Below are positions 5,163 to 51,934 of a stretch of 64,000 nucleotides of DNA, piece by piece. Origin of the DNA: Symbiodinium natans (taxonomy: Eukaryota; Sar; Dinophyceae; Suessiales; Symbiodiniaceae); the NCBI GenBank assembly GCA_905221605.1, contig CAJNDS010000024.1, positions 62,001 through 126,000 of the forward strand. Direction: 5' to 3'. Position numbers and translations under genes: made by a program. Within the stretch, counting starts at the first letter, position 1. Every line of letters begins with the position of its first letter. The notes below the pieces were generated by a model. It saw nothing but the letters and a program-made list of their open reading frames with translations, was not told where the DNA came from and did no database searches.

Positions 5163-5173
5163 CCTATTCACTG

Positions 5174-17000: not shown

Positions 17001-18967
17001 AAAAGGGGGTCCTTAAGCCCTGAGCCCTGAAAACTCTGAACCGCAAAAGGCGATGTTGGGTGGCAAACCCTAAATTTTCAAGGGGGGGGATGTTGGTTGG
17101 CAGGCCACAAGCCCTAAAAGGAAACGTGGGGCGACCCTAAACGGTGGCAAGCGCGAAAAACTTCAACTAAGCAACATCTTTGGCACCCCCTTTGAGGGAT
17201 CTGGCCGTTCGAAACAAACATGAGAAGGTCCAGCTAAGCATTTTGGATTGTCTCAACAGTTCCAAGGGAACAACAAATGTTAGAATCCATGATGTGCCAT
17301 ATGCTGCGCCATGCAGTGATCGGCGTGAATTCCGGTGATGTGCTGTTGCCCTCCACCTAAGGAGGCAGGCACGAGACAAGGCCTTCGCCAAGGCAGAAAC
17401 ACCTGCAGATGGCATCGAAGACAGGTCCGCGGTCTTGTACAAGACGGACCTCATTCCGATTCAGAAGCTCGGTCGAGCACCCTCCTGATTATGGCCATTA
17501 ATGGGCCCTAATTCCCACGATCATCTGCCGCAGATGCTTTGAAGAGCTTGTCTAGGTTCTGCGCAGCACCGAGGCTCTCCAACATGTGCTACGGATGGAT
17601 CCGGCATGAGCCAATCTTTGAGAATGTCAACGTGTCCGTGGACCAGGGCAAGCTGGTGGCTGTCATGGGATCGCACGGGTCTGGGAAGGCGAAACCTGCC
17701 AGAATTCAGCCAAGGGGTTAGGCTGGGTTTACCCTGCCGCAGACGACCACAGCTTGATTGAAGGATGCACCAACATGTCCTGACAGGAGTAGCCGCCGAT
17801 CTGTAGTTTTGAGTCGGGGTGAAGCTGGCATTGAAGTGGCGTGGCAAAGGATGTGTAGAGAAAGGAACTCAACTCATGTTACCTCATGTTCCGTGATGTT
17901 CCTCCGCACACTCTCGAGCTTATCGAGTCATCGACGGTGTAATGATGCCAAGGCCAAGCGTACCTCTCGAAACATCCATCGTATGTTGCAGCTGAGGACT
18001 CTCCTCAAACTGCTTGGACACATGGTCTTTCCGACGGATGGAGCCATCTTCATTCCCTCACACCTGAGGATCTTGCACGTGACCCAGGAGGCTTTCATTC
18101 TCAATCTTTCCGCATGGCAGAACCTGATCTTTGGTTGCCCAAACCCGCACACCGTTGATCCACGTCGGGTTCGAAGAATCTGCGAGCGACTGAAGATGAA
18201 GGTCACACTTGAGTTGATCAAAGACGACTTGGAAAAGCAGGAGAAACTGAGGGGGTCCCCCTCAAATGCGGATGAGGAAGACTCGGAGGAGGAGGAAGAG
18301 GGAGAGAAGGATTTCAGGGGCGCTGGCAGCGCATGGCAGGAGAGCCTCACGTATTCGGAGAAAGTCAAACTCCACCTGGCGAGAGCTCTGATCATGAACC
18401 CGGAAGTTCTGGTCTTGCAGCGACCGCTGCTCCTTGCCTTAAAAACTCCCTCTTTACCCTCGGCGTAGAGATGTGTGGCTTTGTGACGTGTAGATTTCTG
18501 GCTCCGAGGCATCACTACGACAAGAAGACGGGCGAGCTGGTCCTTGACCTTCTCAAAGAGAACGTGCAGTCAAGGGGCCTGGAGCTGCCAGAGAAGAACC
18601 GGGTGCACCGCCGACCGCGCACCTGTGCCTCGGCAAAAGGGCTCGGGATCGGGGTTGAAAACAATATTAGAGCTGAAGGATGTTTAGGGTTTGGGCTTAG
18701 GGTTCAGGGTTCAGAGGCCCTAGACCGGACCCCTAACTTTCAACGAAACCCTGAATCCTCAATCCTGCAACCCTAAAGCCCTGTTCCTGGTTCCTGCCCT
18801 TGTCACTTCAAGGTTTCTTCACGGTGGAAGCCGAAACCGACGCGCACAGAGCGGATGTTGTGTGGTACATTGACCGCTCAACGGTGAGGAACTACGATGA
18901 TCCTGGCACTGTCACATCTGAGTTCTTCAAAGCCAAGACCCTGGGCTCCTTTCACATGAACGACTGA
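14079..18967 (+). CDS. Calx-beta plus ABC transporter protein, multi-exon
   Basis: Exons in order: 14,079-14,180 (IYYVEEDEGRLTVDIMR, Calx-beta-like); 14,468-14,690 (YRKSIDINTIASAYW, CLEVRLLDPEGCNLGPL) and 14,752-14,850 (CRVKIIDTGTFPSVKYEDQ), also Calx-beta-like; about 15,140-15,240 (WEYWKLCFYQVPGIAVRT); 15,483-15,733 (membrane segments FILCLNIYLVDVLF and AYAVAISYVAPMLVLHAW, then LQASLFRRYLNYS); about 15,825-16,114 (VPPADMQHALSLG, LAVFTYFTL, YLILAMPSLMAIFLA); 16,169-16,650 (cytosolic linker, YFPKWLGPVFVAAYIALD); 17,540-17,690 (ABC nucleotide-binding domain start, VAVMGSHGSGK Walker A); 17,980-18,460 (VTQEAFIL Q-loop, TYSEKVKLHLARAL signature region, EVLVLQRPL Walker B region); 18,505-18,630; 18,813-18,967 with TGA 18,965-18,967. 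The signature is not LSGGQ and the Walker B acid is Gln, so ATP hydrolysis at this site may be weak. The start was not found. Calx-beta normally binds calcium or mediates adhesion. Confidence 0.75.
18660..18790. repeat. Degenerate TTTAGGG-like intron sequence
   Basis: Within the last intron of the ABC gene the sequence contains TTTAGGGTTTGGGCTTAGGG and then the opposite strand version (ACCCCTAA, AACCCTGAATCC, AACCCTAAAGCC). The plant-type telomere repeat TTTAGGG is used by dinoflagellates; interstitial degenerate copies are common in such genomes. Confidence 0.7.
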
Positions 18968-20470
18968 AGCAAGCCGTTGGGCTGCTAGCGTTGCTCGTAG
19001 CTGCCACCTGTGCAGCTCCGGGGCCATCGAGAACCTTCGATCGTCCTTTCAACGCACCGCGTGCACTGCCAAAGAGAGCTCGAAATGTTTGGTACCATCC
19101 GCCCCCCGGTAAGCCACATGCAACCTAAGCCGGTACCTCACAGGACCGTCACGAAGACACCGGGCCCGTCTCTCAAATGTCGCCGCCCCCCCCCCCCACC
19201 CTACATAAATGAATAAAGGTCTGAAGCTTCCATATTTGAATGGCTGCCCGGGGCCCTGCGGATTTTGGGGTCCTATCCGCACCATATACACGCAAGTTTG
19301 AAACTGAAGAGTGTTTTCAATTGTGAATGAAGCTCAGGGGCCATAGTGATTCGAGGCTCCAACCTCTATGCAAGCTTTAATTTTAACGCTACGCGACCCG
19401 CCTCGGCCCGGCCCAGCGCATCCGCGTGAGCATGGTGATTCCGCAGCGCCCAAGTCGCTGGACCCCAAGCAATAAGGGTTGGGTTGAGGGTTGAGGGTTG
19501 AGGGTTCCGGGTTTATGGTTTATGGTTTGGGGTTTGGGGTTGAGGGTTAGTTTAGGGCTCAAGGTTCACGCTTTGGGGTTGAGGGAGTGATCGTAGGGTT
19601 GAGCCAGGCCCCTTAAACCCCTTAAGGTTTAAGGCGGCTCTTCGGCAGGGTGGGGGAGGGGGGAGGTGGGGTGGGGGGAGTGGGGGCGGGGGGGGTAGGG
19701 GTGGGGGGGGGAGGGTGGGGGGGTGGGGGGGGGTGGGGGGGGGGCGGAGGGGGGGGGGGGGGGGGGGGGTGGGGGGGGGGGTGGGGGGGGGGGTGGGGGG
19801 CGTCCGAAAAAGGGCCTTTGGGTGTGGGGGGGTGCCTGTTCTGACAACCTATACACCTCCGGCCCGAGGCCTCGGCGGATGTTGAGGAGAAATCTCCCTT
19901 GCCATGAGAAGCTGAATCATGCCCTCTAAATTCACTAGTCAAAGCAATGCAAGGATTTGTGTTTCTCCAAAAGCTTGAGGAATTTGAGATTTTCGATTGA
20001 ATCCTTGAGGCTGAGACTTTGGGCCTCGATTGTAAGCTTCGGTATCCCAACTGATTTCGTGTTGGCGGAGCGAAATGCTTAATCTTGATGCTAAAGAATT
20101 TGGAGACTAATATTTGCGCATTTAGACAGTTTTGAACGAAGCGCCAACGTTTCTTGGATTTGAAGCAGAGGCTGTCTTGCGCAACATCAATTTAGATTCC
20201 TCTTCGTGTTCAAGCTTTACGGGAGGATTTGGCGAGCCTCAAAAACTATAGGGTCTGTTTTGTCGGAGGGCTTGGAATGAACATGTTGCGACCGAAGTCA
20301 GCTCAGCCCCGAGATCGTGACATCGGAAATTCTTGTTCGAACAGAATTCAACCGTTTTCGCAATGAACAGGTCTGCAAGCTCTAGACGTATTCTGATGGC
20401 CAACAGGAGCGTAGGAATTTTGAAATGAGTCGAGCCGTTTTGAGTTAAAGCATCCAACTCTGGGGGTAAT
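18968..20470. other. Non-genic: telomere-like and G-rich repeats
   Basis: No gene is recognised. 19,475-19,620 is a degenerate TTTAGGG/TTGAGGG repeat. 19,640-19,800 is almost pure G with scattered T and A (long G runs), followed by moderately AT-rich sequence. Gly- or Pro-only open frames across the G run are composition artefacts. Confidence 0.8.
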
Positions 20471-21600
20471 CTCTGCATGCGATTTGCATTTGCATGGAGA
20501 AGCGTGTTGCAGCATTGCGGGAGTTGGATGCCCAACATTTGTTCAGCACCAGCTTTTGTTCACAAGGCTGCAGGGTGTTTTATGGGGGCAGATGCTTACC
20601 TTACTTACCTCAGCTTGGAGCATGTTGCGGCCTTCCAGCACGAGGTCTACCAGCCAATTTGCGTCTTGCTCCAGTGTCCAGCTTCAGAATTTCGGCTCCA
20701 CGCTTTGCAGCCCGTTGGTTTAGGCATCTTGAGAAATGCCGCCTATCGAAACTTGCACTATAACGGGCTTTTGATCAAAGCACAGCAACATGCAGAACTT
20801 CGATTTGGGCAGCAACGTATCAGCATAGGCATCTGGCACTTCTACATCCAAGGGCTCGTTCGAAGCCGATGCATCGAGATGTCTTTGAAGATGCAAGTGC
20901 CTCTGCAAGACCGCCATGTTTGTCCGAGTGTGGAGCTTCATTACCTGACGGTCTGTGATATGGTGCACTGCATGTCAGGGATTTCCGATGGCTATGGTTA
21001 TGGCGGAAGTTGAGCGTCTCGTCCTTAGAGTTGCCCCGCATCTGCTGCAGCACCGGGAATCGGACTTGCTCATCTCGAGGTTCCGTGCAGGCGATCTGCA
21101 CGCGGCTCATGGAACCGCATGTAGAGGCGCTTCAGCAGCTTAAAACCACCCCCAAGCCCAGGGAGACCTCCGAGTGAGGTGCCGTGGCTTGTTTTCCCTG
21201 AAAGGCGGCAGCAGGGACCCTCGTGCAGATCGAGGGCTTGTGGGATCTTGCCAAGGCCGTGTTCCCAGCATCGTCAATCTACCACCACTATCATAGCAGA
21301 GAGTTTTCAAGCCCCCATTCTCTTTAGAGGCGAACTCGAGGAAGCTTATCGACATGGACCATGCCGGTACCTCGGGCCACTTTCACCACTGCCTGTGCAC
21401 TTCATTCGTGTTCTGCTTTGAGTTAACTTCGGTATTTGTTCATTCCCTCATTTCGTCTGAGGTCTTCCGCAATATGCAGGAGGGGCTTCTGAAAATGGAT
21501 GGTTTTCGCATCCTGGTCTTGAAATTTTTGGGGAGTGTTTGGGGGAGGGGAGGGGGATGTGGAGACTTGCGACTAAGGCACGGAACTTGACCGATTCGAT
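20471..21600. other. Unassigned stretch with a 178-codon open frame
   Basis: The longest + strand frame runs 20,477-21,013. It has mixed composition, no recognised domain and no convincing splice-bounded blocks, and other frames are open over parts of it. I do not call it a gene. Confidence 0.3.
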
Positions 21601-21615
21601 TCCACTCTCAACAAG

Positions 21616-21734
21616 CAGGCGGGCACAGCGGGTTTAGAGTGGCGCTGTCGTGGGGAAGATGGCGCGGCACCATCGTCAAGGCTGTCGAGACGGAGAGCCT
21701 GATTGAGCGCTACGAGGCGTATGCGATGCTGTAA
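21616..21734 (+). CDS. Possible terminal exon, unknown protein
   Basis: The frame reads HSGFRVALSWGRWRGTIV then KAVETESLIERYEAYAML and stops at TAA 21,732-21,734. Codon choice (GTC, AAG, GAG, CTG, CGC) is like that of confirmed exons here. The alternative is that a splice donor lies before the stop and the exon joins the coiled-coil pieces downstream. No family recognised. Confidence 0.4.
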
Positions 21735-21780
21735 AGTTGTGTCATGTTGCTTTGGGGTGGAAGAGCAGAGATCACCAGAG

Positions 21781-21965
21781 AGTCACCAGAGGTCGAGTTG
21801 CAGCAGCTGAAGATGCTCACCAGGCAGAAGGATCGGCTTTCGTGTGCTATGTTCTAGGACGTCTGGTGTCCGTGTCTTCAGAGCAGGCAACTTGTGGACT
21901 GCTCAGGAGGAAGCAAATCTGCAGCAACGACGTGCCCTTGATGCATTGCGGCGCCCGCCCCATTT
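21781..21965 (+). CDS. Possible coiled-coil exons
   Basis: Two pieces read SPEVELQQLKMLTRQKDRLS (21,781-21,840) and AQEEANLQQRRALDALRR (21,900-21,955). Both have the heptad-like Leu spacing and charge of a coiled coil. They lie on the strand of, and upstream from, the better-supported coiled-coil pieces at 24.1-25.9 kb and may be the same gene. Confidence 0.3.
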
Positions 21966-22369
21966 GAGCGGAATGGACAGAAGAGATGTGATCGGAGATA
22001 CGCGCGGTTTAGGAGGGTCTAGGACTGCATCGCAGGCACGAGCTGCAGCACCTCCAGTCGCGCCCTCAAGTGCACTCGAAGGATCTCGAAGGCAAGTCTC
22101 CACACAGCAAGTTAATCATCCTGGGAGGAAGCTGCAGTCCGGCTGTGAAGAGTCCTTCTTTTCAAGCCCGGAGCTGAACCCTGCCCTCCGAAAGAACCCC
22201 CAAAACAGGGATGCGCCTGTGATGAGTCAGGGCGTCTTTTTCAACCTGAGCTGCTTTTTGGGATCCCCCCTTAGGCCTGGAGCAGAAGTTCGGAGAGGCT
22301 CCGAGAAGTCCTTTCGCACGTTGAGCCAACGTGAGCACATTCGCTGTTCTGCTGTGCCTTAAAACCTTC

Positions 22370-24110
22370 ATTGGGAAATCCCCCATACTCTTGTCCTTAA
22401 ACTCCTTAAGCCCGAGAATTCTCTCGTTGTGGCAGTTGTCGCCCCTCAAAGCGGAAGTGGAGGCGAGAGACTCAGCAAGCAGGGCTTGGAGGGTTGGATA
22501 AAGAGGGCTTTTAGGGTTTATGCAGGGAGTTCAAGGCTTGCTTCTGAGTAGACGGTAGAGGGGTTATCGGACTCGTTAAGGGTTTTGCCGGTTCAGCGCA
22601 GCCTGCGGGTTGCGGTGGCCAATGCGAATCAATGCTGATAGTCCACTGTAGCGATGCCTCTGTGGCTGGCGAAAGCCCAGTAGATCCTGAGCCCAAGTGG
22701 CTTGCCTTTCTGAGTGTGGAGTGCAGCAGCACATAGTAGCACATCGTTCAAGTGATGTTCAATGATGTTCAATGATGCAGTTTTCGTTCTGTGGGGGGCC
22801 CTTCTCTCAGTACGCTGCTGAAAAGAGTGTTGCAGGGCCGAGAAACACGCCTCGGAGCCGCAGGCGAGGATGACCTCCATGGACCTGAAGCACCACAGCC
22901 TCACGGATCAGGCTCAGAGACAGAAACTCTCCGTGTTTAACCGTTTAAGCTCATGAAGAGTTGAGGTCTGGAGCAGTGGCGGCCCTCAGGACACTCAAGC
23001 CTTCTCTTGAGTCTTGAAGAGAGTTTGACAGAAGGGTGCTTCCCCGACAAAAAGCTGAGGCGAATGTGCCATAGCCAAAGTGTCTGGGGAGCTCTGCAAC
23101 TTCCAAGATCGCTTCGACCAGTTGAAAGCAGTGGGTTCCTCGGAGCCCAAAAACTCCGGGTTAAAGAGACGGGTACGTGAGGCTGAATTAAAGGTGCTCT
23201 CTGAAAAAAGGTGCTCTGAAAAAGGGGGCACTTCGAAGGGCTCTCTGTCTGAGGTGGTGCACAGCCTGGAGAGTGAGCGTGACGGCCGCCAGAAGTCGGG
23301 TAGCCCTGGGAAGAGAGAGACGCATCATCTTTTGTTTGGTGAAGTAAGAGGCATCTTTTGTGATGTTGTATTGCTTTACCTGATTTGAAAACTATTTTTG
23401 TTGGGAAAGAAGGTGGGAAGAGGGGGCGCCTGTCGAGGCTGGAGAGCATGCAGCAAGAGCTGGCGGACTGGAGCGGGTCCCAGCAAGCGATTCTTTCCTT
23501 TTGGCTTTCTCCTCTTCGTCCCCTTCAACCTTCTATTCCCAGCTCCATCTTTCTGAGCTCCATCTCCGCCATGTGCCCCATCTCAGCTGCATCTTTCGCG
23601 CGGCGAGGTTGGGCCAATCTCGATTCGAGGCGTGAGATGAGTCGAGTTTTGACGCAGTTTCACTACCCTTCTCCCCGCCCCTCCCTCCCAAAAGTGCAGA
23701 AAGTGCTCCAGATGCCCCATGCCCCAAGGCTGCATCTGTGAGGAAGGCGAGGTCCATCAGTCCATCTTGGTCCATGCTCCGCTTTGTCTGAGACACTCCT
23801 GGCACGAGGCGTTCTCTGCAGCAGTAGAGGCCAACAAAGAAAGCCTTCAAATCGGGCGTCGCTGCCGAACTTGTCACTGGTCTGCGAGCCAAGTGAAACA
23901 TTCTTGTTCTTCATTGACAGGTTGGACGTGGCAGCAGTCTTACTATTTTTGATTCGCGCGTGCTGACACGCACAAGCCTCTCCTCAAGGGCTCGAGTTAC
24001 TCTAGTTCGCTAGGCTGCAAACCAAATAGCCAACTTTATGGACGAAGTGCGTGGCTGTCTCGGATGTTGGCGCCCTCACTGCAGCACTCTACAGCAGCAT
24101 GTCTCCGTCT
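22370..24110. other. No gene recognised
   Basis: Several frames of 80-170 codons exist on both strands, none with a recognisable domain or clear splice borders. Sequence is mixed and moderately GC-rich, consistent with a long intron or spacer. Confidence 0.4.
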
Positions 24111-24115
24111 CCAAG

Positions 24116-25865
24116 GTGCAGAAAACCAGAAGATCCTGGAGCAAACAGCTGACATTCAGCGGCAGACCGCTGCCACATGTAGCAGCTTCAGGACATCACC
24201 GCCATGCACCGCAATGCACCGCAGCTAGACGCCTGCCAATCTCTCACCTTTTCGTGGTTCCAGGGCGGAGCTGGACGAGCACCAGCGCCAGCGTCAATTC
24301 GCCGATGCACGGACTGAGGTGCTGCGCACGGAATGCTTCGTTGGTTGTGATGTTGTGCTGTTTTGTGAGAGGCCATCCTCCACGAGTTGCGAGAGGCACG
24401 AAAAACGGACACCTGCGCAGAGCTTGATTGTCGCAAGCCGAACGCAAACAAGTTAAGGCGCTGGACGAGTACGACCGCCGGAGGAAGTGACGACCTCGAC
24501 ACAGCACAAGGATGCAAAGAACCGAGGCATGGGTGTGGTGGGTGCCACTTAGGCGAGAAAAGACTACCCTCGAGCTGCAGATGAAGGACGGGGTCAATGG
24601 TGCTTGCTTTTGTCTCCATGAGCTCCATGAACAGCACGGTACTGGATCTGAGAGAGTGGTGGGAGAATGTGGGTGCCGATATAGGAGGTTGGGCAGCAAC
24701 TGGCCATCCTCCATGGATCCGTCGAAAATGCCGTCCGAGGTCATCTGATCTGACGTTGGGCGACTTTGTTTTAGAACTTTGTAGACTTTGCACGAACTGC
24801 GCAGCTTGCAAAAGCCTGGAGCCCCTCTGTGGCGCGCTCGTTGAGGCAGGGGCGGACAACTTGCTAAATGCTGCTAGAGCAGACACGGCTAGGTGTTGGC
24901 CATGCAAGTGTCCTTGGAGCGACAGGCGGGTACGGCGTACAGCCATACTGGCCCGTGTAGCTGCATGACCTCGTAGCCTCCATGTTGCAGGAATTTGCAG
25001 ACTGGCATCGGGTCTCGTTAGTCGGCTACAAGTCTGTCTCCACCACGCACAAGCCCGCTGAGGTTTGGGCATTGTGACATGATCCATGAATGTATCCAAG
25101 GATTATCATAGCAGCTGTAATCGAGCACTTTCCATGTGCGTTCCAACACATCTGCACATGAGATGCGAGGTCGATGACAGCGCCTCGAAGTCTCCCTCGA
25201 AGTCGCCACCGAAAGTCCCCAAGCAGCCGAAGCCACGAAGGGAAGGGGAAAAGAGATGGGAAGAGAAGAGCTCTGTGAGGGGATGCTCTCTGAGGGTTCT
25301 TGTTCTCCTTCAGTCTCAGGTCGCCTCGGAGGAAAGGGGACCCCTCTCAGGCATCTCAGCACGTCAAAGCCTGTTGGGGACGTCGCCTCTCAGCGCACAG
25401 CGCCTTGGGGAGGTAATCAGCCTGGACAAGCGGTGTTACTCCTGCTGCAGCCAGAGCCAAATGGTCATGGCCGGCTTCAAGCCCGGGGGCCCAGAGAACA
25501 ACAGCTCGCAGAGATTCGCAGAGAGCCGAGCTTTCATCGTGTCTTCGTCTCTCCGCTGCTTCGAGGATGGCATGTCTGCAGTACAAGCCCTCGCCCGTTG
25601 CCTGCAGCGGAGGACATGTGCTGGCACTTCTAGCAGAGTCTGGCAGCACTACATAGCTGAGCTCTGGTCGGGCTTGGAGGCATCTTCGAGCGAGTGGAGC
25701 TGTTCGATCACATGGCCAGCACCTTTCTCTTGCACAACGGGGCAGTGATGCGGCAGAGCCGCTGCTGCTCAGAAGCCAAGCGCTTGAGGAGCAGCTTCTG
25801 GAAGTCGCACGTGAGCGTGTTCGGTACAACCGAGACGAGGAAGCTTGTGCACTCCCGCGCGTGTG
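24116..25865 (+). CDS. Coiled-coil protein gene, scattered exons
   Basis: Pieces with coiled-coil composition follow one another: 24,116-24,178 (AENQKILEQTADIQRQTAA, after CCAAG), 24,264-24,331 (AELDEHQRQRQFADARTEV, after CCAG), 24,440-24,490 (AERKQVKALDEYDRRRK), and 25,780-25,862 (ALEEQLLEVARERVRYNRDE). A separate SPKK-like stretch (SKSPSKSPPKVPKQPKPRR) lies at 25,186-25,242. Short exons of Glu/Gln/Arg-rich helix separated by 100-1200 bp fit one dinoflagellate gene encoding a long coiled coil. The exact family, start and stop are not determined. Confidence 0.4.
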
Positions 25866-25869
25866 GTGC

Positions 25870-27230
25870 ACCCCCGACGGGGAACCCCTTAACAGCCAGT
25901 GCCGCTGTGTGTTCCAAGTGGAGGAGGTGCTGCTGCCGAGTCCGTTCGGTTCAACTGGCCCGGATCTCAGTTCTCATGAAGGAGAGATGAGGAGAAGAAG
26001 ACGGATGATGGAAAGACAGTTTGGAAGAGTACGTGTAGCAGAAAGTGTGGTGTGGCCTGCCAGGACAAGGGGCTGAGGCATTCGCCTTCGGCTTAGCAGC
26101 CTAGCTCGGCTTAGCCCGACTTAGCTGACATAGTGCGCACAGCGACGGGCATCACAAGGACATCACATCAGAGGGCACCACAGGGCACCACAGGGCATCA
26201 CAGGGCAACATGGTCGGCGAATCCGAGGCCGTTTCTGCACCGCCAAAGGCCCCTGCTCTGCCGATGTGTGGTCTCTGGGTCCTACTGTGTATCCCACGTC
26301 CTTCCTTCAACTCTCAGGCCAAAGCCCTTGCTTTGCCAGCGTTGTCTCCGAGGCTTGGATTTCTGAAAAGTTCCCTGTTCTCCGACAGCTTTCTCGGCCT
26401 GCAGGTGAGGTGAGAAATCCCTGCTGAAGGCAGAGGTTCTGACGTGCTTTGGAGAATCCAGCCCAGTGGCCCCGGTGGCTAGCATTGGCTAGCCACAAAG
26501 TGATACAAAGTGGAACCACGTGCCCTCGTCTCGCCATTTGGATTTTGGGCTTGATTCTTCTTGACGCCCCCTGGTGTGGCAAGTTGCTACCAGGATCGCC
26601 GTGTACAAATGCGAGGACCCTCGCTTTAACACCTTCCCCTGTGACTGTGGTCGCCTGGCCTTTTCCTCTAAAGCCCTGGCCCTTGCCAAACACTGGCATC
26701 CACTAGCCTCACCCGAGACCCCCTGCTCAGCCGCCTGGTGTTGACCAAAACATTGGGGGGGGGTTAAGGTAAAGTGGGTATGGCAACCTAGAGGCAACAT
26801 ATTGCTCTTGAGATTCGCTCGGTGACTCGTGCAGCCGCACACTTCCGTGCACGTCCCTGCACGTCCCTGCACGCCGTTGCCTGGTTTCTTGGTCCAAACC
26901 TGGAGACGGACCCTGGAGAGACCGCGTTCCAGAGGCGAAGTGGTGCTGTGAGGGGGCTTTGTGTGGGTTTTCCCTCGCATGAGAAGCCTCAATAGTTAAT
27001 GGCATTAACTTAATGCATGTTCATGTGGAGGAGACACAAACGGCAGCACTGCATTCCTGAACTGTAGGTTCAGGATACTCGGGTTTTCAGTGTCTGCCTT
27101 GTACTTATCTGTTAATTCCCATGGAAGTAAACCGAGCTTTCTGCGCCTGCTGCACAGGCTCCTGGCGATGCTTTCAGTCGCAAACTATTTGAAGTGTCTT
27201 GGCTGCGAGTGCTCGGTCTAGACTGGTCTG
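25870..27230. other. No gene recognised; small tandem repeat
   Basis: A 10-11 bp repeat (CACCACAGGG, about four copies) lies at 26,170-26,205. Open frames on both strands show no domain. Confidence 0.45.
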
Positions 27231-27233
27231 CAG

Positions 27234-27458
27234 GACCTGGGGCCTACGAAACCTGGAACGTCCAATGTTTTGGAAGCGCCAAGGAAGCCTCGACGTGGTG
27301 AGCCACCGCCCAGTGATGTAGGGCCAGGGTCCGCAACCGAAACCGGTTCGGGGATTGTGCCGGGGCCTGACGCTTTCTCTGGGCCAGTCCAACAGTATCT
27401 GATCTGCGAACCTGTCCTTGAGGCAATGCTTGAGAGTGAAGGGCTTCTGCGTCATTAA
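27234..27458 (+). CDS. Terminal exon, Pro/Gly-rich protein
   Basis: After CTGCAG at 27,233 the frame reads DLGPTKPGTSNVLEAPRK, then GEPPPSDVGPGS, and ends with FSGPVQQYLICEPVLEAML and a TAA at 27,456-27,458. The 74 codons have exon-like composition and a structured C-terminus. No family recognised and no upstream exon identified. Confidence 0.4.
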   Translation, partial: DLGPTKPGTSNVLEAPRKPRRGEPPPSDVGPGSATETGSGIVPGPDAFSGPVQQYLICEPVLEAMLESEGLLRH

Positions 27459-27954
27459 CCATGCCGTTTCAGAAAAGTGCTCCCCGCCTGCTTTTTTGCA
27501 GGTCCATAGCCATAGACTTTCATGTGACAGCGCCACAGAGCGAGCCCGTGCCAGGATGGTCACAAGCGCATCTTCCGAGCTGGAATCCCAAGAATGGTAT
27601 CAGCCCGCAGTCCTGATTCAGGCGCGTTGCGCTCGAAGAACTCTGGCCTTCGCTGGTTTCTAATGGCGTGGGCTGGTTCTTTCCGCTGCTGCCGGCCTTG
27701 CTCAGCCTCGTTTCTGCCAGGAAGGCCTGCTGGGCGTGGAGGGATCCAATCGAATTGCCAAAATGGCATCAATCGACTTTCCTGAAAGCAGCAGCGAGCA
27801 GTTTCAGGCCAGGCCATGTCTCGACACTGTGCACGTGGAGAGCTGTGGTTCATCACTCCCTCGTCCAGGATGGCCTCGCAGGTATAGATTTTGCAATGTG
27901 GAAGCTTGCGGAGGCCCGAGCTCTACAGTAGCGCCCAATTTCTGTCTTCTGAAG

Positions 27955-28005
27955 TCTATTGGAGCCTATTGGAGCCTATTGGAGCCTATTGGAGCCTATT
28001 ATGGA
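27955..28005. repeat. 10-bp tandem repeat
   Basis: TATTGGAGCC is repeated about five times head to tail. It also reads as EPIGAYWSLL in one frame, which I treat as a by-product of the repeat. Confidence 0.85.
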
Positions 28006-28341
28006 GCCTGTTGGATCCCTTCTGTTGCCAGGCCATCGGCCCTTTCCAGGATGAGATTGGCTTCCGATGCTGTGGTCGGAGCGTGGGGTTCCTGCACCAG
28101 GATCGGCCCCGTGACTGCCATGTCGCATCTGCCAAACTCGTGTGCATCACCGTGCAACCGCAGCAAGGCGAGCGACCCCGACCTAGAAGAAGCAGAGCTG
28201 ACCGACCAGGAAGCCAGCGACTGGCCCCTGAGTTGCATCAGTGGCAGGAAAACACAAAAAGTCGGTGAAGGGCCCGGTGTTTTGTGCACCTTTTGCACCG
28301 CCCTTGACTCCTAGGAGCGCCATTTTTACGAGCAGAAAGAT

Positions 28342-31300
28342 TCTGATTATGGTTTGTTTAGGCCGCTGGCTCAGCTTTTCGCCGGGCTGGGGCAGTGGGT
28401 GGCAGCACTTGTGGTGCGCCGAGGCCCTGGCAAAGGAACCCTTGAGATGCAGCCCTACGATGACGAGCCGGGGCCTCAACATGTCTTCGAGTCCATCGAA
28501 GTGGGTGCTGACCTTGAAATTCTCAGAATTTCTCAGAAATGGGCACTGAAAAATATGAGAAGATCTCACAAAGATCAACCTCCCACGATTCCCAGGGCGA
28601 ATGTCTCGGAGATCACCACCGTGCCCGGTCTTGTGGTCACAACCCAAGCAGCTATTCAAAGGGCCGGAATGGGGCAGCTGTCTTGTACCGTGACAGTGAC
28701 TGGCAGTGGCAATTTGCGTTGATTACAGGTCGTGCTCCGCACGGACCAGCTTTCCTTCAAGTTCTTCTGCAGAGGACGAGAGGCACTTCAAGAGCTGCAC
28801 CTACTGTACAGGAAACATACGCATGCGCGGTTTGCGGAGTTACAACAAGAACAGCTCGTGACCAGGCTACGCATGTGGCCACCTCCTTCATGCTGCAGAA
28901 CGACATTTTGCGAATGCACAGAAATAAGTCCCACCGGCCTGTTTTGTTCGCTCTCGTGAATTGAAGGTGGGCTCTGCGATGCTGTGCTAGTGCTGTGCTG
29001 AAGGCTCGAAGCACACCTCACCCCACCTGCCCAAGAACTAGATCAATGGATCGACCAGCGCCTGCGGGTTATGCCGGCAGACTTGACGCAACATATGAAG
29101 GGCTTGCTCTCATGTTTCCACCTGCACATGATGGAGCATCGCAGGAAATCAAAGAGATGGAGCCTGACGAGCCCACAGAGGAATGGACCGCCAAGGGGGA
29201 CGTTCCCAGGACAAGGGGATCAAAGGTTTGGAACAGGTTTGAGACATGTTTGGGAAAGTGCTTGGGACAGTGCAGAGACACAGTTCAAGAGTTCAAGAGC
29301 TGGCAGGAACTTCATCCACGCCGCCAATCGGACCTGGTTCAAACGCCAGACCACCGTCTGCAAGGGTGCGGCTGCCAGGCGGGGGCATCCCGGAGAGAGC
29401 CTGGACACGCCATGCAAGGCGCACAGTTGGCCTCTCGATCAGGTTACCGGTCACCTGGGAGCCGGAGGTGTTCTTCCTCGGTTGCACGGCAGGCCCAGCA
29501 CGCCGTTGCCGTTGTCTTCCTGCTTGAGCTTTGAGTAGTCAATGCATCTTCGAGGTTGCGACACGGTCATTGAAGTCCCGATCATGCGATGGGAACATGA
29601 CACCGTGTGTGTGCCTGAGTTCATTGCTACGCAGACTCGGCAGTGTTCCGCTTTGCTTGCCAAGACCTGTATGCTTCTCAGGTACGACCCTTCCCCTGAT
29701 GCGTGGAAGAAAGACCCGCCGATGACCAATTGCAGGCTGTGTTGGTGGTGGATGCAGTCCTCGGTAAGCTAAAAGCTGGCACCCGCTTTCGGGCCTTTGC
29801 TAGGCACGCTTCTTTCGTTGATGGAGTGGATCTGTTCGACAACAAGCTCTTTGGTTTGTCCCTGGCAGAAACCAAAGGCCGGGAGCAGTTCTCGGTAAGT
29901 TGGTTTCTGGGCGACTGCTGGGTTACCTAGGCATGGACCCCGGCCAGCGCTTGGTGCTGGAAGTCACCTACGATGCACTCTACAGGAGCCTTGACAAAGG
30001 CACATAAGTCTTTGCTTTTTCTCCGTGCTCTGCCCTCAAGGAGTGGCATGAGGAAGAACACGCTGATCAACTCCACCTGTGGTATGTATGTCGTGGGCCC
30101 AATGCATCCGATATGCTGAGCCGACATAGGAGCTCAACGACGACGACCGAAAGTAACACCAGAGTCAACGATGACAACAGCATGTTGCCTAAAAAGCGTG
30201 GTCCCAGGTGGGCACATCCTTTAGCGAGTGGAACTCTGCAGAGAAAGCAGCGGATGCCGGCCACCTGGTGAAGTCAGCGGGCAGGGACGGGTTTCAGCCT
30301 GCTGACCTTGTCAGGTTGGCATTTTTGGTGCCACAGGAGGAGCTCCCAGTATCACCGCTGGGCGTTGGGATCTCAGCAAAATCTCAGCTCAGTGGCGCTT
30401 GCACCCCATCCAATGCTCTGATGCATCCTTCAAGGTCTCAGTTTCTGCCTTGGATGCAAAGGGGCCAGTTTAGCCATTGACACGGAGGCAGGGCCAAGCG
30501 AGCGCCTGCTGGTGCTTGCACGTGACTCTTCAAGCAATGCGTGCCTGCCTCACGCACAGGCTGCCTCAGGGCTGTCTGCCGTATTCTGGGCGGCAGAAGC
30601 CGTTGAAAAGAAGGGTGCCGGTCACATACAGGCTTGCAGTCGACAGGTTCCGGAAGAGCTTCATGGGTCCATGCAAGTTCGCAGGAGCTGTCCTGTGGCA
30701 TCGGCGTGCATCTCTGCCTGGCCAAGGCCACCTGACGGAATCTTTTGAGCTGTCCTTGAGGTATTCTCGAAACACATATCTTTGAGATATCCTGGACACA
30801 CACACACAGACACATTTCGGACATCAGCATGAATATCACTGTGCAGATAAGCATAAGCATAAATATCAGTATAGACTTAGATATACATTCAGACAACAAG
30901 ATACACAAAGAACGAAAACTACCTGCAGCTACAACTACACAGATATCCGTCACCATGATTGGTTTAACAGTCGCGCAGGCATGGTGGCCGGCTCACACTG
31001 CAGCGGGCTTCCTTTGCCCGGGGGGCCGCTGCTTCACTTTTGACGCAAGTGCGCAGGGCCACGTGAGGCACGGGAGTTGCTGTGTCTTGAAGAAGGTAGC
31101 TTCTGCTGTGTTTTCCTACCTGCTTGCTTTGTTTTCGAAGCATCAATTGAATTTTGAATTGTATCTGTGTGTCCGGTGTATTGGTGTGTTCTTGTGGGCA
31201 CAGATTCTTGCGAAACACATCTGTGCAGGTCTGAGGGTGTTGGCACGGTTGTGCTCCGCTGCCAAGAGAAGATGGACGGACAAGAGGCACCAAGGGTGTG

Positions 31301-34300
31301 CGGCCTGTGCACATGTGCGGTTTACCCCACGGATGTTCAGGATAAGGAAGAGCTTTCGGTCGGCACGATTGTCGGTGGCGCCACGCAGAATAGCGGCAAG
31401 AGCGCTGGAATGCCGTGGCCTCAAGGGCCGTCTTCTTTGAAAGAAGTTTTTTGCTGTTGTGCATCCGGCAAGTTGAAGAGTTGAAGACTATATATAGGGT
31501 TGCGTGATGAAGCAGAGGAGCGCTCCTTCTGGCCCCGCAGAGCAGGCGGTGCTTGTGGAGGTGCGGAGAGCGTGAGGTGCTGCAGTTGAGCTGCAACATG
31601 CTGCAATCCATGTGAATTCAGATCCAGTAGGCCTGCAGAAAATCTGGCATCACCACCTTGGATGTGGATGTCGTTGAGTGCCACGGATCGGGCCGCTTCA
31701 TCGCGGATGCCATCGAGGTACGCTTTTTGATCAAGTGCTCTTTGTGAGTTGAGAGGTGACGTTCTGCGCTGCTGCAGCGGTCTGTGCCAGGCTGCATCGT
31801 GTGGTAGAGCCCTGAGAGAGGGTGCAGATTCGAACGAGGAGGAGATGCACGGAAGCTCAGTGCAAGGGGGCGCTGTGATATGGCATCTTGTCTCAGCGTC
31901 TGTGAGTGCTGGTCTGACGCTGGTAACTGCCCAAGATCGCGACTGCTAAGAGTTGCGGTTAGCTTTTGTTTGACATGCAAGACAGCCGCAATGGAAGCTC
32001 ATCATTCTTCCCCAAAACGCTCTGAAAGGCTACTTTAGATTGCGAGTAGACACGCTTTAGCTCAAGCCTTGCCATGCCAAGCGCCAGCAATGCGTCCGCA
32101 AGCTTTCGCCCATGTTGCAAGGGCAGTGGGTCAGGAGCTCAGCACAAGCTAAGGGTGGGATCTTGGACGTCGCATCATTGCCCATTGGCGTTTAAGTCGG
32201 TCTCGTTGCCTCTTTCCTGTCTTTTGCAGGGTTCACAACTTTTTGTGCACCAACTGCCGCACCGTTGCTTTTTGTTTTGGAGGTTTTCCCATTGGCTTTG
32301 TGGTTTGATTGAAGCGGCTTTCGACGAAAGTGCTGTGCCCTCCAATGTCACCAGCTGGTTCTTTGAGGGCTGCTCTGCTTTCGCAAGGGAACAGCTTTAA
32401 CTTTAGGCACGAAGTGCAGTCGTTGTTGCATCAATGGCCGGTCTCAGCTCCGGCCGCGTTTCATTTAGGCACCCGTGGTTCAAGCACCTGGCAGTTCAAG
32501 CACCAGGGTGGTTCCAGCAAACACGATTCAAAAACAAATCCCAATTCAAGCATTGGCGATTCAAGCACTGGCGATTGAAGCACGTGCGCTTCTTTTTTAG
32601 GCTTGAGAGACTAGCGTTTGGGGCTTTTGGCTGAGGATTTCTAGGATTTTCGGTTGTTGTTCAGGGTTTACGGCTGCAAGGGTTCAGGGTTTAGGGGTTT
32701 TGCGCCCCAGGCCATCTGGGTAATGCCAGATTTTTCACGTAAAGGTGCGGGTTTTCGAGTGCCTTTTGGTGTCATTATGTGTCTTTTGGGTGGAGGGCTT
32801 TTGGGATTTGGAGCTTTCAGGGTTTTAGGGTTTCTCGATTCCGTAGGTTTCAAGCTCATATGTTAGGGTTTAGGGTTTCGCATCACCCCCTTACTTCAAT
32901 CTCTCGATTTTGAGGGTTAGGGTGTCTATGGCTTGGGGGTTTAGAGTGGAGGGTTTTTCGGATTTGCGACTTTTCGGGTGTAGGGTTGCCAGGGTTGCTA
33001 GGGTTGGTTGTTGGGTACAGGGGTTCTAGGGTTGTGTTTGCAGACAATTTTTTAGGGTTTACGGGTTTGCACCAGGTTGAGGGTGTACGGCGGCTCAGGG
33101 TTTTTAGGGTTTTCGCGTTTAGGGTTAAGGGGTGTCGCACCCCCCTATCTCCTGATTTTAACTTGCTCTTTCAGGCTAGGATCCATAAAAAAGTGTGCCC
33201 CAATAGGATGCCTCCAACAGACCCTGAACTCCGTGAGCGGCATTGGGGGTTGTCGAGTGAGAGAAGTGCAATGAAGTGCAGGGAAAGGGGCCGCTGAGAA
33301 ATGCTCTCAGAGTATGCAACCTAGTCGCACCGAAATCGAAGAATTTGTCCTGGTCCGTGCATGAGTGAGGCTTGACAGGCCTGCTGACGGTCCAAGCCAC
33401 ATGGTTGCAAGTGAGGCTATCATATTAAAGTCACTTCTGCAAGGCCGGACTGGTTGCCTCAAAGATCGCTGAGAGGGATGATCTGACAGACAAGGCCTAC
33501 CAAACGCGCCGACAGCCAGTTCACTGTTTCTTCCCGCAAACCTCCCGGCAGCGCCTGGGCTTGTTTGCAGACCATCCTTGCTCCTTCTCTGGGCCATGCT
33601 GATACTACCGCATACTCGCTGCAGGCAACTGGGCTGGGCCGGTCAACGTTCCAGAAGATCCAGGGCATGCGTAGGTGACAGCCACCTGGCGGGGACTCGA
33701 GTGCCATTGAAATCTTCGAGTCATGCGCCTCTGCATCATGCATTGCTGAGCGTCTGGATGCAAGGAGAGCTTGTTCGAATTGCAACCCTTATCAACAAGC
33801 TTGTGGACATGGATGGCTGGGACGAGGATCAGGAGCAGGAGCTTTTTGAGAACTCCGTGTCGACTTGCCTCGAGGTGATTTCAAGGGGCTTGGCGCCCCC
33901 ACACTATGATATGCTGCACACTTCGAGGGGCTTCTTGGTGGCATCTGAGTCTATGAAAAGACAGGTGTGTCACAGGTCTGACCAACATTGCCAAAATGAA
34001 TCTCAAGAAAATACCCCAAATAATTTCAGTATTACAAGTCATACCGGCACACTCTCGGCTCGGCATTCAGCGGCCCGTGCAGTTCACGGTTGGGTTTGGC
34101 TTATATTTGTCACATCCCACAATCAGCTACAGAATGCTGCAGAGCAGGACCAGCATCTTTCTGGGTTTCTGCACGTGAATCATGCCTTGAGGGAAGCTCT
34201 CACATGCATGCCTTGCATGTTTGCTTTGTGGTGCTTTTTCACTGGCTTTGTCACGCTGTCGCTTTGGCAAAGTCTTCCACTGTCTTTCCTGTTCAGGGCC

Positions 34301-37300
34301 CCTCGGCGAGAAGTCCGTGGACCTCCTGACCGCCAACTTGGTGCAGCTTTGCAAGGCGGAGTGCCGCTTCCCGTACATGGATGAGCAGGACAAGATGAGG
34401 ACCATTCGTGCCGTTGTCTGGGTCATCGTGGGGTCCTTGCAGCCCGGCCGGACGCTGCGCTCCTACACCAAAGAGCTCTGTCGGGACGAAGAGTCCACCC
34501 AATCGGTGGTGGTGGAGGTCTTCATCGAGGGGGCCATGGATGTGTTCTTCGACAGTGAAATGCGGCGCTCCCTGATCCAAGACCTGAAATCCCACATTCC
34601 GGACTTGCCGTTGGTCCCGTTCCTCTTCGAGAACATCGCAGAGTTCCTCATGAAAACCTTCAGTGACACACTGCATGAAACACTCAAGGACGCGTACTTC
34701 ATCTTTGTCGATGCGCGGAAGCTCCGTGAAGACCTTCCGGTCCTCCCGACGGTTCTCTCTGGCGACCTACAAATGCAAGAGAGCCTGCTGATGCAGTACT
34801 GTGGCCGGCCTTTCATGCTGCAGCTCCGCCGTCTCCTCATCGACCGTCTCCTCGAGGATAACTCCAAGAGTCTTCCAATCTTATCCAAGCTGTCCTTGCG
34901 GAGACAGGCCCTGGTGCTTGGTCGGTTTGTGGACCTGCTGTTCAGTGCCTTGCCGGGCTTGGCCAAGATCGAAGATACTGTCCAACCTTTTCACCGGTAC
35001 ATGCACGATGCCACGAGTGGCTTGCAACTGCCGACTCCGACGCACCCAGTTCATGTGGAGGTACCGGTGCCGTTAGATGACCTCACCACTGCCTGGCACA
35101 AGCTGAGCGATTCGCTTGGAAGATGGCGAGACGCTTGCCACATGCTCTAGTTGCACTACACCAGTAGTATCTGTAGCTAAGCAGTAGCTGAACGCAGACA
35201 GTTTTCTGGTGTGATATGCCTGTGCCTCGTCGGCTGAGGATGCGTTTGCCAAATCGCGGAGGCCTGAGGAGTTGTCCCCAGAGATGATCAGGAGGTCGCT
35301 TGTCTCCCGGGACCTGGGTGACTTGGGTGACCTGGGTGACCTGGGTGACCTGGGGAGTTCCGGGAGGCCCCAACGAATAGCACGCGCCAACAGCTCTGAG
35401 AGCTTTGGCAGCGACGAGAGCCCGGGATCCTGTGCCACCCCGAAATCGAGTGCCGCGTATTTCGAACAGTACGACTCTGAGCTTGAAGAGTTCCGCTTTA
35501 ATTTTTCAATGAGAACTTGTGACACAGTGAGCCCATTTCAGGCAGCGAGCCCGAACAACTTGGAACGCTCGCCGAGCAAAAATTCAGTGCAGGTGTAGAG
35601 ACAGACATTTTGAAGTAGAGGCCGTGCTCGAGCACCTCCGGCTGATTTGCTGAGACGAGGTGTTTGGGTCTGCGAGATGCAAGAAGCGTAGAAGTGTGTT
35701 TTTCTTGGCCGGCCTCCTCCATGGAATGCCAGTCGGGGGAGACACGTGTGTCTTGTACAGGGAATACCTCCATACCTCCGGCATGCCATGAGCGTGCCAT
35801 GGTTAGCTTTGGACCGCAACGGCTATCCACTTTGTGACTTTGTGGGGAATGTCTGGATCGCCCAGTTGCCCCCCACGAGAAATGGCATGCTAGTAAGGCA
35901 TGGATGATGCCAGCGTCTGATTTCCAAGGGCTGTTTGCGCGCGATCAGGTTGCAGCTGTGCAGCATGAAGACCAACATTGGCAACTGCATCGAGACGTCC
36001 GGGATTGCAAGCTTGATCAAGACGTTCCACAGCATCAGGCAAGCTCCACCCGAAATAAGACCTATGCCATATGCACAGCTGAATGTGTGTGTGGGCAACA
36101 CTGATGTGATAGAACAATAGAGAATTGCGATATCAGCTTGTTCGCCAGGTGGGGCATTGTGTGTGCGAACAACCACCTGCACCAGCTGAACCCACACTTG
36201 GACATTTCAAGCTGCCCGTGGTGCTGGCATGTCAACATGCAACCGCGAACGAAGTGATGTTCAACACCCCGCCAGGCTTCTCATGTGCACTGAGCCAAGT
36301 GAACAAAAGCTCAGCGCCGTCTTCGTTGGCGTTAGCTCCTGGGGTTTCGGAGGAACTAATGCTGGCGGCCTACTGCTGCATTTGGCCGAAAGTGGTGTGA
36401 CCGGCTGCAAGCGTTGGATCGTCCTGGCAACAAGGTCCATTTGCATTGCTACGGTGGCGTCGACGAGGACCGCCAGCAACATGAAGCATGCTTCCAGCTG
36501 AGCTGTCCTTTGCCAGACTGCTGACATATGCTGACGCCAGGAGATTCGCCTCCCGCCAGAGCCCACCCCACAGGAGCTGAGACCCAGGCGTGCACGGCAT
36601 GGCTGCGTAGCCCTTCTCATGCAATTTGACATGCAGAGCTATGGTGTTTGGGTTGTTGTGGGGTTTAAGGACAGGGTGGGGTGGATATGAAGTGGTACCA
36701 GTTGTGCTTGTCCCTGCAAGGAGGGACTGCTTGAAGAGTGATCCGCAATGGCAGGCTGTCGTACTGGCCGAGTGGCGGCGGCGATTTGGGAAGCATGAGC
36801 CGACCCCGAAGGCATGATTGCTTTGCCTTTGCCTCCTTTTTTCTGCTTTTGTTTCGCATGTGGCGGGAGCAGTTCACGACAGCCCGAGACAGGGGCTTCT
36901 TCATCATCGGCTCATGGAGTGGCTGGACTGAGCCAGAGCCAATGGAGGCAAAATCTGCCAAAACCTTCCGAAAAACTACAACTCTGAACCCGAGCACCCA
37001 AAGCCCTTGTTGAGTTTTAACATCTCTCCCGGAGAACTAACATAGCATATGCACATGCATAGCGCGACATGGATGGGTGGCAGTCGGTTGCCCAAATGCT
37101 GAAGCTTGAACCCTGAACATCCCTAAGCCCTCCAGCCTACGCAATGCCAGGACGAAGGGGATGGCTGCAGCGGCCCTGGTGATCATGCGTGGGAATATAA
37201 GTGCGAATTTTCTAGGGCAAGTACGGGCATAAAGTCTGGATGCAAGATACTGCGAGGCTACGGGTACACGCTTGTCCTGGGCGATACCAGATGGGCCGGG

Positions 37301-49429: not shown

Positions 49430-49915
49430 CCCAGGGTATCCTCCCCCCCCCCCCCCAATGGTATGCCCCCCTCCCCCTCCACCTAAACCTTAAACCCTTA
49501 CCCCTAACCCCTCAACCACACCACAGGGGAAGGGGGCGCGGACCTTAAACCCCAAACCCGAACTCCCCCAACCACGCCCGAATTAAACCTTAAACCCTAA
49601 CCCCCCAACCACACCCACACCACGGCAAAGGGGGTATTAAACCTTAAACCCTGAAGCCCCAACCACACCCACACCACATGGGGGGCGCGGGGTTTTTAAA
49701 CCTTAAACCCTGAAGCCCCAACCCCACCCACACCACAGGGGGGGGTATGAAACCTTAAACCCTCACCCCCCAACCACACCCACACCAACACCACAGGAGG
49801 GGCCCGGGGTTATTAAACCTTAAACCCTGAACCCAAAACAAACCCACACCACAGGGGGGGCGCGGGGGTGGGCCCTAACCCTTAAACCTTAACCCCTCAC
49901 CCCCAACAACACCCT
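49430..49915. repeat. About 60-bp minisatellite built on CCCTAAA-like units
   Basis: Each unit has TTAAACCTTAAACCCTNA, then CCCCCAACCACACCCACACCACA, then a G-rich stretch. About seven units follow one another. The core TTAAACCCTAA is the reverse complement of degenerate TTTAGGG. Non-coding. Confidence 0.9.
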
Positions 49916-49919
49916 ACAT

Positions 49920-50195
49920 CGCAGGGGGAGGGGGGGGTGGGGGTAGGGATACAAGGGAGGGGGGGGATACTGTGCCATGGGGGGGGGGGGGGGGGGTGGG
50001 CGTGGCAGCCCTGGACCATATATATATATATATACACATATATCTCTCTCTCTGCATATATATATACACATATATATGTATATATGTACATATATATATA
50101 CACATAAATAAATAAATATGTAAATATAAATAAATAAATATAAATAAAAATATATATATATATATATATGTATATGTATATATGTATATATGCTA
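49920..50195. repeat. G runs and TA-rich microsatellite
   Basis: G runs at 49,926-49,938 and 49,979-49,997 are followed by TA, TATATACA and TAAA repeats to 50,195. The element starting at 50,196 is inserted at the end of this TA tract. Confidence 0.9.
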
Positions 50196-50223
50196 CCCCC
50201 CCCCCCAGCGACCTACCCTTTTT
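50196..50223 (+). repeat. Left terminal inverted repeat
   Basis: C11 followed by AGCGACCTACCCTTTTT, directly after TA. Confidence 0.8.
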
Positions 50224-50399
50224 AGGCCTTTTTAGGCCTTTTTAACAAAAAATGACAAAGAAGGCCCAAAAGTCGCGTAGTTAATCACCGGGTAATGAAG
50301 GATAGTTACTGGGACACCCACCTCACAGACCCCGATAAGCCAGCATTGGAAGAATCTACATTTTGAATCTGAAGCGGACAATGCTGTTTTTAGATGTTT

Positions 50400-51180: not shown

Positions 51181-51184
51181 ACAC

Positions 51185-51880: not shown

Positions 51881-51934
51881 TGTTGCCTCGTGACCGTGAA
51901 GGTGAACCAAAAAGCCAAAAAACCAAAAATACCA

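What the first reader, a model, noticed from the sequence alone, without database searches (positions are those of the whole stretch)
30435..36395. Ketosynthase-like gene with a dismantled catalytic triad
After a phase-consistent GC-AG join (30,487/30,560) the active-site region reads DTEAASGL where condensing enzymes have DTACSSSL, so the nucleophilic Cys is Ala. The first His motif EAHGTGT is ECHGSGR (His kept), and the second, KTNIGH, is KTNIGN (His to Asn). The fold-defining segments before, between and after are well kept (MDPGQRLVLE, GVSSWGFGGTNAGG). Loss of two of three catalytic residues with a preserved scaffold suggests a pseudo-enzyme, perhaps decarboxylating, regulatory or acyl-binding.
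Basis: partly seen in the sequence, partly recalled or inferred. Interest (0 to 1): 0.8.

Follow-up and report, generated by a model that had tools for sequence, protein, structure and literature searches.

The report
Dead ketosynthase from a dinoflagellate family
This stretch of a dinoflagellate-type genome carries an intron-rich gene for a ketosynthase-like protein that has lost the parts needed for its chemistry; it belongs to a family of such silenced copies, a kind already noted in print but of unknown purpose.

Summary
A ketosynthase (KS) domain can be read from 29,545 to 36,401 (+) in about 17 short exons, with a "GSW" C-terminal segment near 36,900. The joined 5' part (295 aa) scores 131 bits to PF00109, with no stop or frameshift if GT-, GC- and GA-AG introns are allowed. 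Cys is Ala (DTEAASGL), the first His is kept (ECHGSGR), the second is Asn (KTNIGN). Of 30 in-frame splice forms tested, one puts Cys in that column, by deleting the motif.

It is not isolated: among 18 KS models from this genome, six lack the Cys and form one clade (99/99 with the motif columns removed). Surveys already describe dinoflagellate single-domain KS clades that lack the Cys, function uncertain. So it is a new member of a known kind.

Condensation is excluded on sequence; decarboxylation is unlikely (one His and both HGTGT Thr changed). A retained non-catalytic partner or acyl/carrier-binding protein is the best guess. A recently dying copy is not excluded: some 15-20 residues are unplaced in a 4.2-kb intron that holds another ORF, and no transcripts or orthologues were available.

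The parts
29545..29606 (+). KS exon 1 (..GCDTVIEVPIMRWEHDT); intron GT-AG follows; 5' border not fixed
29682..29735 (+). KS exon 2 (VYDPSPDAWKKDPPMTNC); intron GC-AG follows
   Evidence: set by hand on L038 (VYDPNPTSWMQQKTSCRH), then found unaided by the profile, which includes L038
29804..29877 (+). KS exon 3 (RHASFVDGVDLFDNKLFGLSLAETK)
29931..29985 (+). KS exon 4 (GMDPGQRLVLEVTYDALY); GA-AG intron follows
   Evidence: without GA donors one frameshift is needed here
30041..30089 (+). KS exon 5 (RSGMRKNTLINSTCGMY)
30208..30255 (+). KS exon 6 (VGTSFSEWNSAEKAAD); 3' end uncertain
   Evidence: extends it to 30280
30315..30363 (+). KS exon 7 (VGIFGATGGAPSITAG); 5' end uncertain
   Evidence: starts it at 30337
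30435..30487 (+). KS exon 8 (RLSFCLGCKGASLAIDTE); active-site block, first half
30560..30631 (+). KS exon 9 (AASGLSAVFWAAEAVEKKGAGHIQ); first codon GCT = Ala in the nucleophilic Cys column; 3' end uncertain
   Evidence: one search ends it at 30614
30943..31067 (+). KS exon 10 (..AWWPAHTAAGFLCPGGRCFTFDASAQGHV); borders uncertain
   Evidence: one search reads 30929-31107
31229..31283 (+). KS exon 11 (RSEGVGTVVLRCQEKMDGQ); one of two rival models
   Evidence: and the run without GA donors skip it and run exon 10 on to 31107
31353..31411 (+). KS exon 12 (LSVGTIVGGATQNSGKSAG); 5' end uncertain
   Evidence: starts it at 31341
31518..31560 (+). KS exon 13 (SAPSGPAEQAVLVE)
31631..31717 (+). KS exon 14 (ACRKSGITTLDVDVVECHGSGRFIADAIE); His1 codon CAC at 31682-31684, HGTGT reads HGSGR
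31718..35948 (+). long intron (4.2 kb) between exons 14 and 15; some 15-20 KS residues are not placed in it; holds telomere-like repeats and another ORF
35949..36038 (+). KS exon 15 (LQLCSMKTNIGNCIETSGIASLIKTFHSI); His2 column is AAC = Asn at 35983-35985; the Lys of KTN is kept
36149..36217 (+). KS exon 16 (RWGIVCANNHLHQLNPHLDISSC)
36276..36401 (+). KS exon 17 (..FVGVSSWGFGGTNAGGLLLHLAESGV); 3' end not fixed
36897..36944 (+). GSW segment (FFIIGSWSGWTEPEPM) of the C-terminal domain seen in other KS genes of this genome
   Evidence: tblastn 6.9e-6 from L031; 30.0 bits, with further doubtful exons, against 14.7 on the other strand

Best explanation
The locus is a spliced gene for a dinoflagellate single-domain, type I-like ketosynthase paralogue that keeps the KS fold but cannot condense. 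The nucleophilic Cys is Ala, the second His is Asn, and the HGTGT Thr pair is Ser/Arg. Shown from sequence: the exon chain, the open frame over 295 + 94 residues, the three columns, and membership of a clade of six altered-site KSs in this genome. Inferred: the protein is made and kept as a non-catalytic partner, either dimerising with or scaffolding the catalytic single-domain KSs, or binding acyl or carrier-protein ligands, in the way the chain-length factor (KS-beta) of type II polyketide synthases is a dead KS partner (recalled). The role is a guess; the lost chemistry is not.
For: Spliced alignment: 204 bits over 391 columns, 16 introns, no stop or frameshift; 271.5 bits with a profile built from 16 KSs of the genome without the window; 22 controls at most 24.3 bits. 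Joined 295 aa: PF00109 131 bits, E 6.6e-38, where of ten single pieces only two matched PF00109 at all, with 12-13 bits. Solved relatives: CurL 2.2e-47; a chain with two KS domains 1.2e-62. All 13 introns of the 5' part end in AG and start GT (4), GC (7) or GA (2). The six altered KSs are one clade, 100/100, and 99/99 with the motif columns left out. The window's end branch is 0.74-0.78 in three trees, under the median of all rows (0.89-0.97) and about equal to the median of the 12 Cys-bearing rows (0.77, range 0.28-1.82, my count), so it has not evolved faster than typical canonical kin. The five other clade members also align without stop or frameshift, to a profile that includes them; one (L025) lies in a 1003-aa open frame without introns. 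A GSW C-terminal segment is shared with other KS genes.
Against: No transcript, protein or orthologue was available. Some 15-20 residues between exons 14 and 15 are not placed; runs put different short exons there, or none. Forbidding GA donors brings in one frameshift. The intron model can hide damage: 7 of 15 simulated decayed copies showed no stop or frameshift, though one of those seven scored 187 bits and the other six at most 142. The N-terminal domain was not found in 9 kb upstream; the same search gave no clear match in the other altered members tried either. The partner/scaffold role has no direct evidence.
Confidence: 0.6

Rival explanations
1. A recently dead copy: the gene once belonged to the altered-site clade but is now breaking down, split by the 4.2-kb intron that holds another ORF.
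Against: No stop or frameshift in 389 modelled residues; neutral decay of an intact paralogue by 15% or more left at most 55.9 bits (6 of 6 runs) against 204 for the window; end branch no longer than typical; L043 and L039 also have introns of 1.0 and 1.5 kb within a few residues of that place.
Confidence: 0.22
2. A KSQ-like decarboxylase: without the Cys it decarboxylates malonyl-type carrier substrates to make starter units.
For: The first His and the Lys are kept. KSQ domains of GfsA are among the solved relatives. Recalled: Cys-His-Asn sites in KAS III also decarboxylate, and this site reads Ala-His-Asn.
Against: In the mechanism given in passages of PMC12267109 both His hold the carboxyl group and both Thr of HGTGT the thioester oxygen. 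The window has His/Asn and Ser/Arg, and none of the six members keeps the set: His1 column H,H,D,F,N,N; His2 N,N,H,M,Y,H; first Thr S,D,S,H,Q,E; second Thr R,S,A,L,A,R, in the order window, L038, L045, L039, L043, L025.
Confidence: 0.1
3. Artefact of splice choice: the real mRNA uses other sites and has a normal KS active site.
For: GC and GA donors leave many choices; no transcript was seen.
Against: Of 30 in-frame stop-free forms, one puts Cys in the column and it deletes the DTE..AAS segment. The Asn codon at 35983-35985 and HGSGR lie inside exons. Five paralogues share the loss of Cys, among them L025, where no splice is involved.
Confidence: 0.03

Closest known systems
Dinoflagellate single-domain KS clade 1 of Gambierdiscus (PMC7159223, passages read)
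   Same: Single-domain type I-like KS; active sites lack the Cys; function called uncertain; found as a clade.
   Different: Their sequences and logos could not be read here, so sharing a clade with the window gene is not tested; the state of the His and Thr columns is not given in the passages seen.
Altered-site KS clade of Karenia brevis and Symbiodinium minutum (PMC3489724; PMC4647583; passages)
   Same: A separate dinoflagellate KS clade with alterations in the active sites.
   Different: The passages seen do not say which residues; no sequence comparison was possible.
KSQ domains of loading modules (solved: GfsA)
   Same: KS fold, Cys replaced.
   Different: Recalled: Cys to Gln with both His kept, decarboxylase. 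Here Cys to Ala, His2 to Asn, Thr pair to Ser/Arg.
Chain-length factor / KS-beta of type II polyketide synthases (recalled)
   Same: A KS paralogue that lost the Cys and acts as a dimer partner.
   Different: No evidence here of a partner; the spliced protein's best relatives are type I KSs.

Membership tests
Dinoflagellate single-domain type I-like KS, altered-site (clade 1) kind | KS domain of the type I family | tested here: met
   PF00109 131 bits and PF02801 39 bits on the joined 295 aa; best solved relatives are type I PKS KSs
Dinoflagellate single-domain type I-like KS, altered-site (clade 1) kind | conserved active-site Cys absent | tested here: met
   Ala in the Cys column; A,A,S,G,G,G in the six members; Cys in 12 of 12 canonical rows
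Dinoflagellate single-domain type I-like KS, altered-site (clade 1) kind | forms a clade apart from Cys-bearing KSs | tested here: met
   99/99 with motif columns removed, 18 own-genome rows only
Dinoflagellate single-domain type I-like KS, altered-site (clade 1) kind | same clade as the published clade 1 sequences | not testable with these tools
   no dinoflagellate sequences of other species were at hand; the logos are in figures
Dinoflagellate single-domain type I-like KS, altered-site (clade 1) kind | N-terminal dinoflagellate domain with ExExGYLG-type motif | tested here: inconclusive
   no clear match within 9 kb upstream (17.7-26.8 bits); none either in L043, L039, L038 and L025 (at most 27.1 bits), while Cys-bearing L036, L026 and L031 match each other at 44-71 bits
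Dinoflagellate single-domain type I-like KS, altered-site (clade 1) kind | no second PKS domain on the transcript | tested here: inconclusive
   no Pfam match above cut-off in 27 of the 211 stop-to-stop ORFs of at least 100 aa; exon-sized domains could be missed
Catalytic KS (Cys-His-His) | Cys, His, His triad | tested here: not met
   Ala, His, Asn
KSQ decarboxylase | both His and the Thr pair of HGTGT kept | tested here: not met
   HGSGR and KTNIGN (role of the residues from passages)
Chain-length factor / KS-beta | forms a heterodimer with a catalytic KS | not testable with these tools
   needs protein
Pseudogene | reading frame broken | tested here: inconclusive
   no stop or frameshift in 389 residues, but 15-20 residues unplaced, one frameshift without GA donors, and the test is weak for recent decay

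The most novel reading that the evidence does not exclude
The altered-site KSs are a eukaryotic counterpart of the type II chain-length factor: a whole clade of dead KS subunits that pair in trans with the catalytic single-domain KSs of dinoflagellates and decide chain length or partner choice, which would explain how polyketides are built from separate single-domain proteins.
Probability: 0.17. Interest if true: 0.8.

Novelty: new member of a known kind. Interest (0 to 1): 0.38.

Why it matters
A review says that the Cys-His-His set was seen in almost two thirds of 2577 dinoflagellate KS domains (passage of PMC6722697), so a third or so lack it, and at least one survey used only sequences with conserved active sites (passage of PMC6361889). 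If such copies form one old family under constraint, as the six here suggest, they are not noise but a second class of KS subunit whose role in dinoflagellate lipid or polyketide building is an open, testable question.

Tried and rejected
N-terminal domain: four single-sequence profiles on 20501-29600 gave L036 21.5 (own nulls 19.0-24.9), L025 24.6 (19.5-21.4), L026 17.7 (16.3-20.6) and L031 26.8 bits (16.9-20.0). Two lie a little above their own nulls; I did not count them as found, since true pairs score 44-71 bits.

Decay test: 15 simulated neutrally decayed copies of L036. Stops or frameshifts were seen in 3 of 3 at 3%, 2 of 3 at 6%, 2 of 3 at 10%, 1 of 3 at 15% and 0 of 3 at 20%. Intron choice hides damage, so the absence of stops alone is weak evidence; the score drop is the more useful part.

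Frameshift reading: by eye an extra base seemed to lie between 30424 and 30437; the spliced alignment gave an open exon chain (30315-30363, 30435-30487) and the idea was dropped.

dN/dS: not attempted. The closest paralogue (L043) is 40% identical over 373 columns, so synonymous sites are taken as saturated, and no orthologue was at hand.

Structure prediction: not run, because the spliced protein is not one contiguous translation of the window, and the paralogue loci were not fetched by the tools that the rule names.

Literature: DTEAAS anywhere, 0 papers; EGASS with ketosynthase, 8 papers in the listing, none by title on dinoflagellates, none opened; chain length factor with dinoflagellate and ketosynthase, 2 papers in the listing, not opened. 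Other searches. Passages only were read of PMC10455422, PMC6361889, PMC7159223, PMC4445524, PMC6722697, PMC3489724, PMC4647583, PMC4316588, PMC12300183, PMC2866473 and PMC12267109; no paper was read whole.

Rows left out of the tree: 18 KS models were used. Not used: L028, L032, L033, L034, L035 (other KS types or partial), L044 (109 columns only), L007 and further C2141 copies; L040-L042 gave no match. PF00109 gave 41 exon-level places in the genome, none in the window.
Full report
What is there. The window is C24:62001-126000 of a 759-Mb genome in 2543 contigs. GC and GA intron donors and the KS relatives point to a dinoflagellate (inference; no tool named the organism). Raw frames show KS-like pieces from about 29.5 to 36.4 kb on the + strand. 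Singly they are weak: of ten pieces, five matched a KS-type Pfam model, with 12-22 bits. A profile built from seven KS frames of the same genome, aligned with a spliced-alignment script (introns GT/GC/GA-AG, frameshifts and stops allowed at a cost), covers columns 1-391 of 398 with 204.1 bits, 16 introns and no stop or frameshift. Controls: 7 other window stretches on both strands (two of them overlapping), the reverse strand and the reversed letters of the target, and 6 Markov sequences gave 18.1-24.3 bits (22 of 22). A second profile from 16 KSs of the genome, without the window, gives 271.5 bits, and one from five altered-site KSs plus L036 gives 278.9. If GA donors are forbidden, one frameshift appears near 29981.

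Gene model. Fourteen exons (29545-31717) join into 295 residues and three more (35949-36401) into 94, without stops. The 13 introns of the 5' part start GT 4, GC 7, GA 2 and all end AG. Introns 1, 8 and 11 are multiples of 3 and stop-free. Exons 1-3 were set by hand on paralogue L038 and were then found unaided by the last profile, which includes L038. Borders of exons 6, 7, 9, 10 and 12 and the existence of exon 11 differ between runs. Between exons 14 and 15 some 15-20 residues, by comparison with L036 and L043, are not placed; runs disagree. The joined 295 aa matches PF00109 at 131.2 bits and PF02801 at 39.2, and solved type I KSs (CurL 2.2e-47; a chain with two KS domains 1.2e-62). Downstream, FFIIGSWSGWTEPEPM (36897-36944) matches the C-terminal GSW domain seen in L025, L026 and L031.

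The catalytic columns. In an alignment of 18 KS models of this genome (12 with Cys, 6 without), the window has Ala for Cys, keeps His1, and has Asn for His2. Lys of the KTN motif is kept. HGTGT reads HGSGR, the first Thr change being conservative. L038 has the same Ala/His/Asn. L045 has Ser/Asp/His, L039 Gly/Phe/Met, L043 Gly/Asn/Tyr and L025 Gly/Asn/His. Of 62 columns conserved in at least 90% of the canonical rows and filled here, the window keeps 41: 12 of 25 in the three motif blocks and 29 of 37 elsewhere (p = 0.016). The block split was made by me after seeing the list, so the p-value is only a guide. Splice choice does not rescue the site.

One old loss. The six altered KSs form one side of a branch with 100/100 support, 99/99 when the three motif blocks are dropped, and 100/99 when the long row L037 is left out as well. 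With all columns the window groups with L038 and L045 at 89/86; without the motif columns that fork is open. The five relatives align without stop or frameshift, to a profile that includes them, and L025 lies in a 1003-aa open frame. The window's end branch is 0.74-0.78, under the median of all rows (0.89-0.97) and about equal to that of the 12 Cys-bearing rows (0.77, my count), which speaks against long neutral decay. A simulated decay of 15% or more leaves at most 55.9 bits in 6 of 6 runs, while decay up to 10% left 82.6-232.3 bits in 9 runs, so a recent death is not excluded.

What it most likely does. Condensation needs the Cys and is lost. In the decarboxylation mechanism described in passages of PMC12267109 the His pair and the Thr pair hold the substrate; the window lacks one His and has Ser/Arg for the Thr pair, and no member of the clade keeps the set. 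What is kept is the scaffold. I therefore take it as a non-catalytic KS subunit, a partner or scaffold for catalytic single-domain KSs or a binder of acyl or carrier ligands. This last step is inference by analogy with the chain-length factor (recalled) and has no direct support here.

What is known (passages read). Eichholz 2012 (PMC3489724) reports a K. brevis clade with altered active sites; a 2015 S. minutum survey (PMC4647583) a clade of S. minutum and K. brevis with alterations, 21 of 25 S. minutum KSs keeping the residues; a 2020 Gambierdiscus study (PMC7159223) a clade 1 of standalone KSs lacking the Cys, function uncertain; a 2019 review (PMC6722697) says almost two thirds of 2577 KS domains keep Cys-His-His. 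Thus the kind is known and this is a new member. A GSW tail is clear in L025 and present in the window; L045 and L043 gave weaker matches (28.7 and 24.4 bits) and L038 none to speak of (19.3 bits).

Limits. The own-genome search works exon by exon and misses many pieces (with PF00109 it missed the window gene itself), so six is a lower bound. Further possible N-terminal exons on C2123, C2116, C2265 and C1884 could not be fetched.

Noticed in passing
window 34191-35150 (+), with an upstream open stretch about 33701-33964: A 319-aa open frame inside the long KS intron, same strand, found nowhere else in the genome and without a Pfam match above cut-off; possibly a nested gene or an insertion that splits the KS gene.
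   Followed up: partly
window 32660-33127, also 16994-19535, 22510-22585 and 49485-49831: Telomere-like TTTAGGGTTT repeats, 35 matches at up to one mismatch against 2.5 expected; ten lie inside the long KS intron.
   Followed up: partly
window 1-2620: A 429-bp tandem repeat, 6.1 copies at 97% match, with five successive 139-142-aa open frames on the + strand; no Pfam match for the one tested.
   Followed up: partly
window 50001-52000: A low-GC island (33% against about 55%) with AT and AACCAAAAA repeats.
   Followed up: no
L025 (C22) 3361-6369: An altered-site KS in one 1003-aa open frame without introns, while many KS genes here are intron-rich; perhaps a retrocopy. Its N-terminus matches TIGR04556 (PKS-associated domain) at 26 bits, below the cut-off of 80.
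   Followed up: partly
L001, L004, L006, L007 (C2141:295-375 kb): A run of KS domains over about 80 kb of one contig, perhaps a large modular polyketide synthase.
   Followed up: no
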